Shown here piece by piece: positions 37,613-43,214 of a stretch of DNA of 64,000 bases. Position 1 is the stretch's first letter. Every line of letters begins with the position of its first letter. The notes beneath the pieces were generated by a model that was not told the origin of the DNA, did not search any database, and saw only the letters and a program-made list of their open reading frames with translations. Location: contig NZ_FUZU01000002.1 of the NCBI RefSeq assembly GCF_900167975.1, positions 813,501 to 877,500 of the forward strand. The letters are read 5' to 3'. Position numbers and translations under genes: made by a program. This DNA comes from Ohtaekwangia koreensis. GTDB lineage: Bacteria > Bacteroidota > Bacteroidia > Cytophagales > Cyclobacteriaceae.

Positions 37613-38563
37613 ATGCTGAAAAAGACTTTTTATACCCTCCTGTTTGCACTGACTGGATCAGGTGTTTTCGCTCAGCAAGATGCCTTGTTTACTCAGTACA
37701 TGTTTAACAACCTGTACATGACACCTGCTTATGCTGGTGTCGATGGTGTAACTCGCCTGACAGCAATTCACAGGAGTCAATGGTTGGGATACCAATCAAG
37801 CTTCGGTGATGGTGGAGCTCCGACAACACAGATGATAAGTTTCAATACTCCTGTGTATCGCTTACGAAGCGGATTCGGTGCTTATGTTATGAATGACAAA
37901 CTGGGCCCGCAAAACAATCTGGAAGCGCAGGCCATGTATGCTTATCATCTCGGTATAAAAGAGACTAAATTAAGTATTGGTATAAAAGCGGGTATATATT
38001 CCCAATCAGTTAACGGACAATACTATCGTTATATAGATGAAGGAGATCCTTTAATTGTAACAGGTAAAGAATCACAAGTACGTCCTGATTTAGGTCTTGG
38101 TATATTTTACAGAGCAGAGAAATACTATGCTGGTGTAGGCTTTAATCACTTGCTTCATTCGCAATTTGATTTTGGTGCTGACAGTGTACGCGGTGCGTTG
38201 GAGAATCATATTAATTTCACAGGTGGATATTTTTATGAAGTAAGTTTTGATTTACGTGTACAGTTTAGTGTTGCCGCTCGAACGGATTTAAATAAGACTC
38301 AACTGGATTTTGCTGGTATAGCATACTTGAAAGATACGATGTGGGGAGGGTTAGCGTTTAGACAAGGTGAAGCAGGAAGTTTGTTACTAGGATATGCTTT
38401 ACTTAAGGACAAATCTTTGAAGCTTGGAACAGCTGTTGACTTTATTATAAAGGATCGAGAAGCCAAGGAAAATTTTTCGCTAGAAGTCATGTTGAGTTAT
38501 GAGTTACCAGTGAATCCGGGCAGCGGTAAAAAAGTCGTTCGGACCCCTAGGTATAGACACTAA
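37613..38563 (+). CDS. PorP/SprF-family type IX secretion outer-membrane protein
   Basis: A 316-residue protein with a signal peptide ending in GVFAQQ. The N-terminal block QDALFTQYMFNNLYMTPAYA and then LTAIHRSQWLGY are the hallmark of PorP/SprF proteins; the rest is a 14-stranded-type barrel with regular amphipathic strands. PorP and its paralogues sit in the outer membrane beside the GldK/N ring and help T9SS cargo or surface adhesin anchoring. It directly precedes gldK, as in many gliding Bacteroidota. Confidence 0.92.
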   Translation: MLKKTFYTLLFALTGSGVFAQQDALFTQYMFNNLYMTPAYAGVDGVTRLTAIHRSQWLGYQSSFGDGGAPTTQMISFNTPVYRLRSGFGAYVMNDKLGPQNNLEAQAMYAYHLGIKETKLSIGIKAGIYSQSVNGQYYRYIDEGDPLIVTGKESQVRPDLGLGIFYRAEKYYAGVGFNHLLHSQFDFGADSVRGALENHINFTGGYFYEVSFDLRVQFSVAARTDLNKTQLDFAGIAYLKDTMWGGLAFRQGEAGSLLLGYALLKDKSLKLGTAVDFIIKDREAKENFSLEVMLSYELPVNPGSGKKVVRTPRYRH

Positions 38564-38690
38564 GCGACATTTGATTTTAGTATTTTTAAGAATTTATGGA
38601 ATTTGTATTTACTTTCTTCAAAAAATAAAGCGAATAAAAATTAACTTTCGTCCCTCAAATTTTTTAGCGTAGACAAACTGAGATAGCAGT

Positions 38691-39782
38691 ATGAATAAAT
38701 CGGTTCTTTCAAAAGTAGTGTTAGTGCTTTCTGGTGCAGTGGCCAGTGCTTGCGGCTTGCTGGGCCTAGGAGGTGGTAAAGGTGGTGGTAACGACCAGGG
38801 CGAACTGGTAGGAGTTCCAGGCCGCGAAGGTTGGGTAATGACGATTCCTTACGGGATGGTTCCAATACCAGCGGGTACTTTCCACATGGGTCAAGCAGAT
38901 GAAGACCCAGCATCTACACAGATCAACTTCAACAAGCAGGTTACAATCGGTTCATTCTTCATGGATGACACTGAGATAACCAACAACGAGTATCGCCAGT
39001 TCACAAACTTCTTTCTCGTTGATAACGGGACCATTGAAGGTTTTGAAACGGTAGATGCTGAAACATTCCGCCAAAAGTATTATCCTGATACTGCCTCTTG
39101 GGTTCGCGATTTTGCGCACCATATGGGAGATCCTATTCAGGATTATTATTACTGGCACCCAGGATACGATGACTATCCAGTGGTTGGTGTAAACTGGGAT
39201 GCTGCTGTGTTCTTTGGGAAATGGAGAACAGCATATCTGAATGATTACAGAAAAAGTGTTGGTGATTTCCAAATGCCATCTTTCCGTCTGCCATCAGAGG
39301 CAGAGTGGGAATATGCAGCACGCGGAGGACGTGATATGGCAAAATACCCGTGGGGTAATCCATATATACGAAACTCTAAAGGCTGTATGCTTGCAAACTT
39401 TAAACCTGGTCGCGGTAACTTCTATGATGACGGCTTTGCCTATACATCACCAGTGCAAGCTTACTTCCCTAACGATTTCGGTTTGTATGATATGGCAGGT
39501 AACGTTTCTGAATGGTGCCTCGATGATTTCAACCCAGCATCCGTACCAACGGTTTGGGATTTGAACCCTCAGTACATAGATCCAAGAACTAACCCTGAAG
39601 GATCTCAATACAACCCTAAGATTCCTCCTAAAAAAGTAGTGCGTGGCGGATCGTGGAAAGATGTTGCATACTATCTTGAAACAGGTACACGTACATATGA
39701 ATTTAAAGATTCCACCCGAGCTTACATAGGTTTCAGATGTGCTATGACTCACCTAGGTCGCTCATCAGGTCAGGAATTTTAA
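38691..39782 (+). CDS. gldK: Gliding motility/T9SS lipoprotein GldK
   Basis: A 363-residue lipoprotein; the signal ends in the lipobox ASAC with Cys21 as lipid anchor, then a Gly-rich linker. The remainder is a formylglycine-generating-enzyme-like (sulfatase-modifying) fold with MVPIPAGTFHMGQ, DDTEITNNEYRQF, FRLPSEAEWEYAARGG and DMAGNVSEWCLDD, and VRGGSWKD near the end. GldK (PorK) forms the outer-membrane-associated ring of the type IX system together with GldN. Shorter than the Flavobacterium protein because the linker regions are reduced. First gene of a tight gldK-L-M-N run. Confidence 0.95.
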   Translation: MNKSVLSKVVLVLSGAVASACGLLGLGGGKGGGNDQGELVGVPGREGWVMTIPYGMVPIPAGTFHMGQADEDPASTQINFNKQVTIGSFFMDDTEITNNEYRQFTNFFLVDNGTIEGFETVDAETFRQKYYPDTASWVRDFAHHMGDPIQDYYYWHPGYDDYPVVGVNWDAAVFFGKWRTAYLNDYRKSVGDFQMPSFRLPSEAEWEYAARGGRDMAKYPWGNPYIRNSKGCMLANFKPGRGNFYDDGFAYTSPVQAYFPNDFGLYDMAGNVSEWCLDDFNPASVPTVWDLNPQYIDPRTNPEGSQYNPKIPPKKVVRGGSWKDVAYYLETGTRTYEFKDSTRAYIGFRCAMTHLGRSSGQEF

Positions 39783-39843
39783 TAGTAAAAAACTCTATCT
39801 ATCTTTAAAAATATCAAAAGGCAAAACTTAAACCATTACTAAA

Positions 39844-40662
39844 ATGAGCAAGAAAAAAGGCGGATTTACCGAACTTCTCTACAAAACCATAATGCCGAAA
39901 GTTTATGGTATTGGTGCGGCAGTTGTAATTATCGGTGCGTTATTTAAAATCCTTCACTTAACAGGTGCAGACGAGATGTTGATGATTGGACTTACAACTG
40001 AAGCAGTTATCTTCTTCTTAAGTGCCTTTGAACCGCCTCATCAAGAACCAGATTGGTCAAAAGTATATCCAGAACTTTCAGAAGACTATGAAGCTCCTGC
40101 TACTCCTACAAGAGTTTCAAATAAGCCAACTGCATCGTTAACTCAACAGCTTGACGCATCGCTTGAAAAAGCTAAAATCGGACCTGAACTTCTTGACAGT
40201 CTTGGTAAAGGACTTACCAATCTTGCTGAATCAGCAAAGAAGATGTCTAATCTTTCAGATGCTGCAGTAGCAACAAATGACTATGCTAACAATGTGAAGA
40301 AAGCTTCTGGTCAATTGCTTGAGATGAATAAGTCATATGATGTTGCTATCAAAGCTGTATCAAGTATGTCTGAAGCATCTAAAGATGCTGGTGAGTATCA
40401 TTCACAAGTGCAAAAAGTAACAAAGAACCTGGCAGCGTTGAACTCAGTTTATGAAATGGAACTGAAGGATGCGGATAGCCATGTTAAGAATATGAACAAG
40501 TTCTACGAAAGTCTGACCGGTGCTATGAATGGTCTTTCTAAAGTAGGTGATAACACAGCGAAATTCACCAGCGAACTTGGTAAGCTTACAGATAATCTGA
40601 CTGCCCTTAATCAAGTTTATGGTAGTATGCTTACTGCCATGAAAGGTGGCGGAAAAGCATAA
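39844..40662 (+). CDS. gldL: T9SS motor protein GldL
   Basis: A 272-residue inner-membrane protein with two transmembrane helices at about residues 20-37 and 45-60; the second has the buried acidic Glu53 in MLMIGLTTEAVIFFL, matching the family's functionally important helix-2 glutamate, and helix 1 ends in KILHL with Lys35 and His38. A long cytoplasmic coiled-coil region follows (residues 90-272). GldL and GldM form the proton-driven motor that powers the type IX system and gliding. Confidence 0.95.
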   Translation: MSKKKGGFTELLYKTIMPKVYGIGAAVVIIGALFKILHLTGADEMLMIGLTTEAVIFFLSAFEPPHQEPDWSKVYPELSEDYEAPATPTRVSNKPTASLTQQLDASLEKAKIGPELLDSLGKGLTNLAESAKKMSNLSDAAVATNDYANNVKKASGQLLEMNKSYDVAIKAVSSMSEASKDAGEYHSQVQKVTKNLAALNSVYEMELKDADSHVKNMNKFYESLTGAMNGLSKVGDNTAKFTSELGKLTDNLTALNQVYGSMLTAMKGGGKA

Positions 40663-40703
40663 TGTTTGAAGGTTTCTATCGTTAAAAATTAAAACAACCA
40701 ACA

Positions 40704-42290
40704 ATGGCAGGTGGAAAAGAAACCCCCAGGCAGAAGATGATCGGTATGATGTACCTGGTACTTACTGCGCTTCTCGCGCTTCAGGTAAGTAACGCGGTAC
40801 TTGAGAAATTCGCGATCATCAATGGCACACTGGAAGGGCTTATAAAGGAAAGTGCCGTAAAAAATGCTGCACAGCTGGGACAAATTGTAGCCGATGGCTC
40901 GAAGAGTTCCAAGCCCGAAATAGTTGAAGCTGTTAACAATGCTAAAAAAGTTCGCGAACTCGCGGACGGAATGGTAAAGTATGTTGATGGTGTAAAAAAG
41001 AGAATGATGCAAGAAGCAGGTGCTACGGACATAAATGAAAACTTCATAAATGACCATAGTTCCAAAGTTGCAACTTTGATGATCGACAAAACTACCAACG
41101 TTGGTACGGAGTTCGTGAAAAAGTTGAACGAATACACAAAGCAACTTGAAGCGTTGAGCGGACGGAAATTTGCAACATTAGCAAAGGCTCCGAAAGACAT
41201 GGATGCTTTTAAGAATAATGAAAAGCACGCTAACAAGGACTTCTTAACGTTTACATTTGAGAACACTCCTCCAGTAGCTGCGTATGCATCTGTAACTCAA
41301 ATTCAGACAGAGATTCTGGCAAATGAAGCGCTTGCATTAGATGAGCTTGCAAAAAAGGCTGGAGCAGGTGTAGTGAAATTTGATAAGATTGTTCCAATGG
41401 TTCGTCCTGTATCTTCAGTGGTAGCTGCAGGTGCGAAATATGAAGCAGATATGTTTATTACAGCATCGGCTTCTGGCTTAACACCTGAAATGTTTTATAA
41501 CGGCAGCAAGCTGCCAATAAGCGATGAAGGTGGAGTAAAGATGGGTAAGGTAGAGTTTGTGGCTCGTGCAAATAGCTATGATAAGGATGGTTTCTCGAAG
41601 CAATCCTTCAAAGCGAAAATCTTGATTGACGGACAGCCTTATGAAAAGGATATCGATTTCCTCGTAGCGCAGCCTGTAATTCGTGTAACAACTGGTAATG
41701 CTCCAACTCTATACATGAACTGTGGTAACGTGGTGAATATAGAAGTACCAGCTCTTGGTACAAACTATAATCCTTCGTTCTCTGCAAACGGAGCAGCAGA
41801 AATAATAAAAGGTGACAAGCCAGGACGTGTAACGATTATCCCTAAGCAGAGAAAAATTACTGTTGCCGTGAGTAATGGTGGTGCTGCAATAGGAAATCAG
41901 TTATTCGAAGTTAAGAATGTTCCTGAACCTAAATTTATAGCGTACGTTGGCAACACTCCTGTTGATTTAAGAAGTGGAGTTCGTGCTAACCAGCTTGGTA
42001 ATTTGAGAATCGTAGCTGAACCAGAAGCAAACTTCAAAGAAGAAGTACCGAAGGATGCTCGTTATAGAATTAAACGTGCTGAAATTATCCTTGGCCGTGG
42101 TACGGCAGGTGTGCAACGTTTAAATGCAACAAACGAAAATCCTGATTTACGTTCTTGGATTAGCCAGGCACGTCCGGGTGATCGTATTGTGATTGATATC
42201 AAGGATGCAATTCGCAGAACATATAAGGATGAAGAAGAAAAAGTTACTCCTAAAGGTTCAAGCGGTATCATCATGATTCCTGTGAATTAA
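40704..42290 (+). CDS. gldM: T9SS motor protein GldM
   Basis: A 528-residue protein with one N-terminal membrane helix (MIGMMYLVLTALLALQVS) and a long periplasmic part that in the family folds into four domains in tandem and spans the periplasm to the GldK/GldN ring. The N-terminal GGKETPRQKMIGMMY is the GldM signature. GldM dimers insert into the GldL pentamer and transmit motion outwards. It starts 41 bases after gldL and ends 9 bases before gldN. Confidence 0.95.
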   Translation: MAGGKETPRQKMIGMMYLVLTALLALQVSNAVLEKFAIINGTLEGLIKESAVKNAAQLGQIVADGSKSSKPEIVEAVNNAKKVRELADGMVKYVDGVKKRMMQEAGATDINENFINDHSSKVATLMIDKTTNVGTEFVKKLNEYTKQLEALSGRKFATLAKAPKDMDAFKNNEKHANKDFLTFTFENTPPVAAYASVTQIQTEILANEALALDELAKKAGAGVVKFDKIVPMVRPVSSVVAAGAKYEADMFITASASGLTPEMFYNGSKLPISDEGGVKMGKVEFVARANSYDKDGFSKQSFKAKILIDGQPYEKDIDFLVAQPVIRVTTGNAPTLYMNCGNVVNIEVPALGTNYNPSFSANGAAEIIKGDKPGRVTIIPKQRKITVAVSNGGAAIGNQLFEVKNVPEPKFIAYVGNTPVDLRSGVRANQLGNLRIVAEPEANFKEEVPKDARYRIKRAEIILGRGTAGVQRLNATNENPDLRSWISQARPGDRIVIDIKDAIRRTYKDEEEKVTPKGSSGIIMIPVN

Positions 42291-42299
42291 AAAATTGTT

Positions 42300-43214
42300 A
42301 TGAAGAAGATAATATTTTTTGCAGCGCTTTCAGCAGTCTGCTTTGTGACGAAAGCACAAGAGGTTCAGGATCTGGAAGTCCAGTATAATCCGAATTCTCT
42401 AAACCCTATTCCCTTGTATGAGCAGCACTACAAAGTGCGCGTATGGAGGAATATTGATCTGAAGGAAAAGCAGAACAAAGGCTTCTTCGCAAAAAATGGA
42501 GAAATCAGCAGGCTTATTTCAGAAGCTATAAAGTCAGGAGAACTAACTGATATATATGCTTCCGATTCGCTGACTACAAAAATCTCTAAAGAAGATTTCC
42601 TTGGACGACTCGTTGCTGAGCAGGCACAAGCTTATGATGCATGGGAGCCAGGCCGTGATTTTTATACGGATGACATTGTTACCTATAGCGGTAAAAATTA
42701 CAGAGCTCTTCGTGATAATAAAGGAGTGACTCCTGGTACTGAAAATTCAGATGAGGATTGGGCTTCTACATCACAAGGTAGTGGTATAGAATATCAGGTA
42801 TCTGATATGAGTAGCGTTCACATGGTGGAGGATATTATCTTCGATAGAAGAAGATCAAGACTTTATTACGATATCCAAGGAATGGAAATAATTATACCGG
42901 GAGCTAAAACTAACACAGGTATAGATGTTTCATTAGGTTGGTTCAAGTATAAAGATCTTGAAAAGCTTTTCAGAAATAACATTCCAAAAGCCGTTTGGTT
43001 TAACTGGCAGAATACTGCTCAGAATAAAAACTTTGCAGATGCACTCTTGTTGAGATTGTTCCATGGTTCTATCTATAAGGTTCAAAATCCTGATGATGAG
43101 ACTATCGACGATACATATCGTGCGAATGGAAGACCTTATCGTGAAGGTGTTTGGGCACGCGAGTGGACAGACATGATGCTCATGGAGAAAGAGCATAATC
43201 TTTGGGAGTTTTAA
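42300..43214 (+). CDS. gldN: T9SS ring protein GldN with an internal CBM5/12-like segment
   Basis: A 304-residue periplasmic protein with signal peptide (MKKIIFFAALSAVCFVTKAQ). Family features are the N-terminal region PIPLYEQHYKVRVWRNIDL, EDIIFDRRRSRLYYDIQGM in the middle and GREGVWAREWTDM-like RPYREGVWAREWTDM at the end. GldN (PorN) binds GldK to form the ring of the type IX system. Residues about 115-154 are unlike the GldN of Flavobacterium as I recall it and read as a carbohydrate-binding module 5/12: W115, Y122, VTYSGKNYRAL, GVTPGT and W154. The gene is followed by an intrinsic terminator. Confidence 0.93.
   Translation: MKKIIFFAALSAVCFVTKAQEVQDLEVQYNPNSLNPIPLYEQHYKVRVWRNIDLKEKQNKGFFAKNGEISRLISEAIKSGELTDIYASDSLTTKISKEDFLGRLVAEQAQAYDAWEPGRDFYTDDIVTYSGKNYRALRDNKGVTPGTENSDEDWASTSQGSGIEYQVSDMSSVHMVEDIIFDRRRSRLYYDIQGMEIIIPGAKTNTGIDVSLGWFKYKDLEKLFRNNIPKAVWFNWQNTAQNKNFADALLLRLFHGSIYKVQNPDDETIDDTYRANGRPYREGVWAREWTDMMLMEKEHNLWEF
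42642..42761 (+). other. CBM5/12-like module inside gldN (protein domain)
   Basis: Codons for residues 115-154 of GldN. The spacing W...Y-x3-D-x-V-x-Y-x-G-x2-Y-x-A...G-x2-P...W follows the chitin-type carbohydrate-binding module 5/12 pattern, with the aromatic residues that stack on sugar rings present. It interrupts a region between two GldN blocks. Confidence 0.6.

What the first reader, a model, noticed from the sequence alone, without database searches (positions are those of the whole stretch)
42642..42761. CBM5/12-like carbohydrate-binding segment inside the T9SS ring protein GldN
GldN residues 115-154 show W115, Y122, VTYSGKNYRAL (aromatic/glycine pattern), GVTPGT and W154, spaced like a chitin-type carbohydrate-binding module 5/12. 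GldN/PorN of Flavobacterium as I recall it has no such segment. Seen directly: the motif and its position between two recognisable GldN blocks. Inference: the secretion ring could bind peptidoglycan or GlcNAc-containing glycan through it, anchoring the machine to the wall. This would be a new mode of attachment for a type IX system.
Basis: partly seen in the sequence, partly recalled or inferred. Interest (0 to 1): 0.75.

Follow-up and report, generated by a model that had tools for sequence, protein, structure and literature searches.

The report
Repurposed sugar-binding fold in GldN
In one large group of gliding bacteria, a part of the motor-driven secretion ring carries a small domain that looks like a chitin-binding domain but lacks its usual sugar-gripping residues, and it may now serve as a contact point for the motor.

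Summary
GldN residues 112-157 form a CBM5/12-fold domain: the segment passes the Pfam cut-off, a profile of 59 GldN modules finds chitinase CBMs in the PDB (6e-8), and the predicted fold superposes on solved CBMs at 1.4-1.6 A. Close module-less GldNs have an acidic Gly/Trp linker there. The 76 carriers on the tree form one clade, so it was probably gained once. In the phylum sample 94 genomes have GldN; 4 showed a module, all in the own family. Unexpectedly, the segment's charge, module or linker, runs opposite to that of the motor-arm tip, GldM domain 4, also after correction for the tree (r about -0.5). GldK covaries too, so this is not exclusive. My reading: a sugar-binding fold co-opted as a docking surface for the GldM tip. 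Identity is near certain; docking is about 45% likely.

The parts
42300..43214 (+). gldN, 304-aa T9SS ring/track subunit carrying the module
42420..42611 (+). GldN N-terminal block (residues 41-104)
   Evidence: PF19841 match 41-303; alignment
42633..42770 (+). CBM5/12-fold module (residues 112-157); strands 126-129, 132-136, 154-157
   Evidence: PF02839; PDB profile hits; AF2 models; Foldseek
42711..42716 (+). residues R138-D139, where CBM5-type modules carry the stacking Trp pair; 139 is D in 60 of 70 and N in 8 of 70 modules
42663..42665 (+). Y122, aromatic in 67 of 70 GldN modules; corresponds to N in 2RTS
42795..43211 (+). GldN C-terminal block (residues 166-304)
40704..42290 (+). gldM, motor arm (528 aa)
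   Evidence: PF12081/21601/21602/12080
41922..42269 (+). GldM domain 4 (residues 407-522), charge covaries inversely with the GldN segment
   Evidence: PF12080
39844..40662 (+). gldL motor subunit
   Evidence: PF22827
38691..39782 (+). gldK-like ring protein (FGE-sulfatase fold) with a KGCM sequence
   Evidence: PF03781; sequence
37613..38563 (+). PorP/SprF-type membrane protein
   Evidence: PF11751

Best explanation
SHOWN: GldN of this lineage (Fulvivirga, Chryseolinea, Dawidia, Chryseosolibacter, Chryseotalea and uncultured kin) contains a folded CBM5/12-type domain where its closest module-less relatives have an acidic Gly/Trp linker. The carriers form one clade. The fold core is conserved and the canonical Trp pair is absent. 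INFERRED: the segment, linker or module, sits where the tip of the GldM motor arm (domain 4) meets the ring/track and gives an acidic, aromatic-bearing docking surface for it. The module turned a disordered contact into a folded one, repeated once per GldN (about 33 copies if the ring resembles PorKN). The fold is exapted: it works as a protein contact and no longer as a sugar binder.
For: Domain. One origin: 76 carriers, 1 change, SH-aLRT 98; 68 of the 72 named loci that cover the region and were fetched by GldN-body patterns carry it. Site loss: 0 of 70 modules have Trp at 138, 139 or 143, against WW or YW in 18 of 20 control loci. Selection: module omega below 0.08 in 5 of 6 computable pairs. 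Replacement: region median 60 aa, charge -5 in 76 carriers; -10 to -23 in 12 module-less GldNs printed, 10 of them the nearest on the tree. Covariation of segment charge with GldM D4 charge: Spearman -0.70 (n=110), -0.71 (69 carriers), -0.78 (41 non-carriers); independent contrasts -0.45, -0.48, -0.53, sign-flip p<=0.001; contrasts for controls: segment with GldM D2-D3 0.03, -0.05, 0.06; GldN body with D4 -0.07, -0.14, 0.07; segment with GldL -0.16. Partial contrast correlation -0.40 with GldK, GldN body and GldM D2-D3 held fixed, n=50. AlphaFold3 in PMC12635249 (passages) puts the PorM tip, mostly D4, in the cleft between PorN copies on the periplasmic face.
Against: The charge test was thought of after seeing the data. 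GldK charge covaries as strongly: raw +0.75 with the segment (segment with D4 -0.72 in the same 50 rows), contrasts +0.44 with the segment and -0.48 with D4; D4 may complement the ring face in general, or both may follow habitat. In the sliding map a GldM window at 346-405, before D4, correlates as strongly (-0.63), and GldN 198-247 gives -0.47. Contacts and model coordinates could not be computed. PMC12635249 calls the confidence of its own PorM-PorN prediction weak. Absence of the pair is not unique to GldN: L165 and second modules of enzyme-like proteins lack it too, and 17 of 70 GldN modules keep a Phe or Tyr at 138.
Confidence: 0.45

Rival explanations
1. Structural filler: a hardy small fold that keeps two GldN blocks apart or packs on the neighbouring subunit, with no partner of its own.
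For: It replaces a linker of similar length (median 60 against 48 aa); doubling is tolerated in L113 and L149.
Against: Near-invariant positions outside the CBM core set (Y122, D139, G160) and the charge covariation with GldM D4 go beyond filler.
Confidence: 0.27
2. Glycan anchor or brake: the module binds peptidoglycan or another periplasmic glycan through a changed site.
For: The fold is that of chitin-binding modules; Y122 is aromatic in 67 of 70 modules and 138 in 17 of 70, and these could form a new stacking site; GldN is periplasmic by homology with PorN.
Against: The Trp pair is absent in 70 of 70 modules; the ring/track is described as moving (PMC12635249, passages); 85 out-of-family GldN genomes gave no module match.
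Confidence: 0.15
3. O-glycan clasp: the module binds the O-glycan on a neighbouring ring subunit and so stabilises the ring.
For: PorK and PorN carry two glycosylation sites each, PorN's on the inner face (PMC12635249, passage); D89 is invariant and S90 nearly so in 66 GldNs, and D-S-L fits the Bacteroidota O-glycosylation sequon (recalled).
Against: No known sugar site is recognisable; the DSL motif is also common in module-less GldN.
Confidence: 0.08
4. Chance resemblance of a low-complexity linker to a CBM.
For: The window protein scores below the Pfam cut-off when scanned whole.
Against: Profile, fold and clade-wide conservation.
Confidence: 0.01

Closest known systems
CBM5/12 chitin-binding domains (ChiC 2D49/1WVV, MmChi60 4MB3, ChiA1 1ED7, 2RTS)
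   Same: Sequence profile, fold and core aromatics W115, F121, Y129, Y134, W154
   Different: Stacking Trp pair absent and the ChiA1 Trp687 position not aromatic; somewhat more acidic; sits inside a ring protein, not a secreted enzyme
PorN/GldN of P. gingivalis (9MZU, 9MYJ, 9OTS, 7PVH)
   Same: GldN family; the model matches PorN by Foldseek, E 8e-10 to 5e-7, TMt 0.52-0.65, rmsd 8.5-14.9 A over the whole chain
   Different: By the HMMER alignment PorN has about 57 residues between the equivalents of GldN Y86 and E177, GldN has 90 (the first aligned block is weak)
CBM5/12-like domains in phage tail fibres and the Anabaena contractile injection system baseplate protein All3316 (7B5H)
   Same: Small fold in a part of a nanomachine
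   Different: Different machine; whether those domains bind sugar was not examined here
GldN-like double proteins (L146, L184, L185) and HEAT-like proteins (L145, L153, L182, L183)
   Same: Carry pair-less modules like those of GldN
   Different: Not the single-copy gldN of the motor operon

Membership tests
CBM5/12 (PF02839) | Significant profile match | tested here: met
   26.8 bits for the segment, cut-off 26.2; 21.7 in the whole protein; 53 of 59 modules at E<=0.001
CBM5/12 (PF02839) | Fold (small three-stranded sheet module) | tested here: met
   Foldseek prob 1.00, rmsd 1.4-1.6 A over 45-47 columns to 1WVU/1WVV/4MB3; no E-value under 0.001, best 1.6e-3
CBM5/12 (PF02839) | Core aromatics W656/Y662/Y670/Y675/W696 of ChiA1 (PMC3701571, passage) | tested here: met
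   W115 68/70, aromatic 121 67/70, Y/F129 62/70, Y134 69/70, W154 70/70; rows were called modules if they had 4 of 5 marker residues, but no row scored 3
CBM5/12 (PF02839) | Exposed stacking Trp (WW pair of the AKWWT type, or Trp687 of ChiA1) | tested here: not met
   No Trp at 138, 139 or 143 in 70 modules; F or Y at 138 in 17; WW or YW in 18 of 20 control loci, absent in L165, not covered in L172
CBM5/12 (PF02839) | Binds chitin or another glycan | not testable with these tools
   needs a binding assay
GldN/PorN | PF19841 and TIGR03523 over cut-off | tested here: met
   204.1 and 112.3 bits
GldN/PorN | Gene order PorP/SprF, gldK, gldL, gldM, gldN | tested here: met
   window 37613-43214
GldN/PorN | Structure like solved PorN | tested here: met
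   9OTS E 8e-10, 9MZU E 1.1e-8 with TMt 0.65, rmsd 8.5 A
GldN/PorN | Forms ring or track with GldK | not testable with these tools
   inferred from homology

The most novel reading that the evidence does not exclude
A sugar-binding fold was turned into the teeth of a rotary or linear motor: some 33 copies per ring form an acidic studded face that GldM arm tips push on, and the fold coevolves in charge with the tip.
Probability: 0.35. Interest if true: 0.8.

Novelty: new variant of a known kind. Interest (0 to 1): 0.6.

Why it matters
How the GldLM/PorLM motor pushes on the ring or gliding track is open; the published model of the PorM tip against PorN is described by its authors as of weak confidence (PMC12635249, passages). 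A natural experiment in which one lineage replaced the presumed contact segment with a folded domain, while the charges of segment and tip stay complementary in both forms, names a segment and a tip surface to test. It would also be a clear case of a carbohydrate-binding fold reused inside a secretion machine.

Tried and rejected
Chance or low complexity: rejected by profile, fold and clade data. Phage origin of the window copy: a viral-contig scan with GldN found no relative, though phage tail fibres carry the same fold; a scan with the module itself was not made. Repeated gain: not needed; one change on the tree, with the caveat that several long branches are placed unsurely. Loss inside the clade: none seen in what was fetched; the one apparent exception, G023, has a diverged module (E 2e-6). 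GldM D4 as the only covarying partner: not upheld, GldK covaries too. dN/dS: one of six computable pairs gives 0.4 on very little synonymous change. The PDB library of VIA-align was not available. Fuchsbauer et al. on PorN is not held, so the place of the PorN loop was not read. Nothing found in print on a CBM in GldN with the searches (listings only; one open library).

Full report
What was checked. The window gene at 42300-43214 (+) encodes a 304-aa GldN by Pfam (3.1e-60) and NCBIfam (2.4e-32). It lies at the end of a T9SS core gene cluster: PorP/SprF-type protein, GldK-like FGE-sulfatase-fold protein, GldL, GldM, GldN. PF02839 (CBM5/12) scores 21.7 bits in the full protein, under its 26.2-bit cut-off, and 26.8 bits (5.4e-6) for the 61-aa segment alone. 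The genome has no other PF02839 match at E<=0.001.

It is a real CBM5/12-fold domain. A profile of 59 GldN modules finds 2RTS (chitinase) at 6.4e-8, ChiC 2D49 at 1.9e-5 and ChiA1 1ED7 at 9.2e-5 among PDB sequences. Each on its own, 53 of 59 modules match PF02839 at E<=0.001, and no other Pfam family is listed at that threshold. AlphaFold2 gives the module alone a mean pLDDT of 90.4 and the whole GldN 84.4. Foldseek superposes the module on CBMs of ChiC and MmChi60 at 1.4-1.6 A over 45-47 columns with probability 1.00; no E-value falls under 0.001, the best being 1.6e-3. The whole GldN matches PorN of P. gingivalis at E 8e-10 to 5e-7, though with rmsd of 8.5-14.9 A over the full chains, and chitin-binding domains follow in the same list.

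Where it occurs. In the first 29 aligned GldNs, the window's own included, 8 carry the module: all 7 of the window's genus and one of another genus. Of the other 21, many have acidic linkers such as DDGWGDDSGWGDD at that place. A scan of named genomes with patterns from the GldN body gave 73 loci; of the 72 that cover the region 68 carry the module. They include Dawidia, Parachryseolinea, Pseudochryseolinea, Chryseolinea, Chryseosolibacter, Chryseotalea and Fulvivirga (NCBI families Chryseotaleaceae and Fulvivirgaceae where looked up or shown). In 390 genomes of the order, 11 have a module match in an ORF of 299-315 aa; the 10 fetched were all GldN and the eleventh, G196, was not checked. In 344 genomes of the family I count 99 with a listed module match in an ORF of 244-371 aa; the list is cut and most were not checked one by one as GldN. 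In 395 genomes of the phylum, 94 have GldN. Three of these gave a module match in GldN and a fourth, G023, which that search missed, has a diverged one. All four are among the 9 family members; none of the 85 others matched, but a search that misses G023 could miss others. On a tree of 123 GldNs built without the insert, the 76 carriers form one side of one branch (1 change, SH-aLRT 98; shuffles average 37.8 changes). Several long branches are unsure. Two-module GldNs exist in L113/L114 and L149.

What changed in the domain. Fold-core positions are kept: W115 68/70, aromatic at 121 67/70, G131 70/70, Y134 69/70, P145 70/70, W154 70/70. Rows were called modules if they had at least 4 of 5 marker residues (115, 122, 131, 134, 154); no row scored 3, so the rule excluded no borderline case. 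The stacking Trp pair of CBM5-type modules falls on positions 138-139. None of 70 modules has Trp at either; 139 is Asp in 60 and Asn in 8; 138 is Phe in 14 and Tyr in 3, so a single aromatic remains in 17, a point for the glycan reading. As a control I fetched 20 loci with strong PF02839 matches in non-GldN ORFs of the same order: 17 have WW and one YW, one (L165) has none and one (L172) is not covered. The control was picked by score against PF02839 and so leans to the classic type. Position 143, by my alignment the place of ChiA1 Trp687 (named as the surface ligand-binding Trp in PMC3701571, passage), is never aromatic in 70. Against a simple loss story, second modules of some enzyme-like proteins (L186, L187) and the module of L188 also lack the pair. 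A near-invariant aromatic of the GldN modules is Y122 (64 Y and 3 F of 70), where 2RTS has Asn. The module is under purifying selection: of 8 close pairs, 6 give an omega for the module, 5 of them 0.01-0.08 and one 0.4 on very few changes.

A possible partner. The region is acidic in both states: median charge -5 in 76 carriers and -6 in all 47 non-carriers, and -10 to -23 in the 12 module-less rows printed, 10 of which are the nearest on the tree. In equal spans it is -4 in 74 GldN modules against -2 in 20 control CBM rows. Because GldM domain 4 is a proposed ring contact, I compared charges, an idea that came during the work. A first look with the last 110 GldM residues gave Spearman -0.69 (n=110), -0.85 (69 carriers) and -0.70 (41 non-carriers), against -0.05, -0.04 and -0.12 for the stretch before it. 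With domain 4 proper it is -0.70, -0.71 and -0.78; raw controls are 0.17, -0.04, 0.27 for GldM domains 2-3 and -0.17, 0.03, -0.17 for the GldN body. Phylogenetic independent contrasts give -0.45, -0.48 and -0.53, with sign-flip p of 0 in 5000, 0.0002 and 0.001; control contrasts lie between -0.14 and 0.10. GldL gives -0.01 raw and -0.16 in contrasts. Results against exclusivity: GldK covaries with the segment as strongly (raw +0.75 against -0.72 for D4 in the same 50 rows; contrasts +0.44) and with D4 (-0.48), leaving a partial correlation of -0.40 for segment and D4. In the sliding map a GldM window at 346-405, before domain 4, reaches -0.63, and GldN 198-247 reaches -0.47. A shared salt effect alone would move all of them in one direction, so the opposite sign of D4 points to complementarity (inference).

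Mechanism. In PMC12635249 (passages read) the PorKN hub is a rigid ring of 31-35, mostly 33, heterodimers, thought to rotate; GldK, GldN and GldJ are proposed to form a moving track; and an AlphaFold3 model, whose confidence its authors call weak, puts the PorM tip in the cleft between neighbouring PorN copies on the periplasmic face. A module that grips the cell wall would brake such a part. With the missing Trp pair and the D4 covariation, the best reading is a docking or push surface for GldM. Steps shown: domain identity, insertion site, single clade, absence of the pair, covariation. Steps inferred: that the segment touches GldM, that the module strengthens or shapes the contact, and the copy number per ring.

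Novelty. Searches of the open paper library (listings only) showed no report of a CBM-fold domain in GldN. I file it as a new variant of a known kind: a T9SS ring subunit with an exapted CBM5/12 fold. It should not be called a carbohydrate-binding module in function until binding is shown.

Noticed in passing
L113 (6119-6433), L114, L149: GldN with two modules in tandem, in different branches of the carrier clade.
   Followed up: partly
L146, L184, L185: Proteins of 558-628 aa: L146 matches GldN in two separate stretches and carries two modules; L184 and L185 carry one module and look GldN-like by eye. Function unknown.
   Followed up: partly
L145, L153, L182, L183: A separate secreted-looking, HEAT-like family (by eye) carries a pair-less module close to that of GldN, followed by a Y-L-F/Y-L-R-D sequence.
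   Followed up: partly
L186, L187, L188: Enzyme-like proteins (AA10-like by eye, not tested); L186 and L187 have one WW-type CBM5/12 and a second without the pair, L188 one without. Possible donors of the GldN type.
   Followed up: no
GldN linker in L007, L034, L039, L043, L004, L005: Acidic repeats of the type DDGWGDD in module-less GldN; over 41 module-less rows the charge of this segment also runs opposite to that of GldM domain 4.
   Followed up: yes
L165 (4222000-4222750 of G137 contig 1): Five CBM5/12-like repeats about 49 residues apart in a 1325-aa ORF; the copies that cover the place lack the Trp pair.
   Followed up: no
L010 and L127/L152 (genome G012): One genome gave two GldN-family matches, one with the module (L152, same protein as L127) and one very divergent without it (L010); the listing gives 4% contamination.
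   Followed up: no
window 38691-39782: The GldK-like protein has NSKGCM, possibly the counterpart of the Arg-Gly-Cys-Phe disulfide site described in PMC12635249.
   Followed up: no
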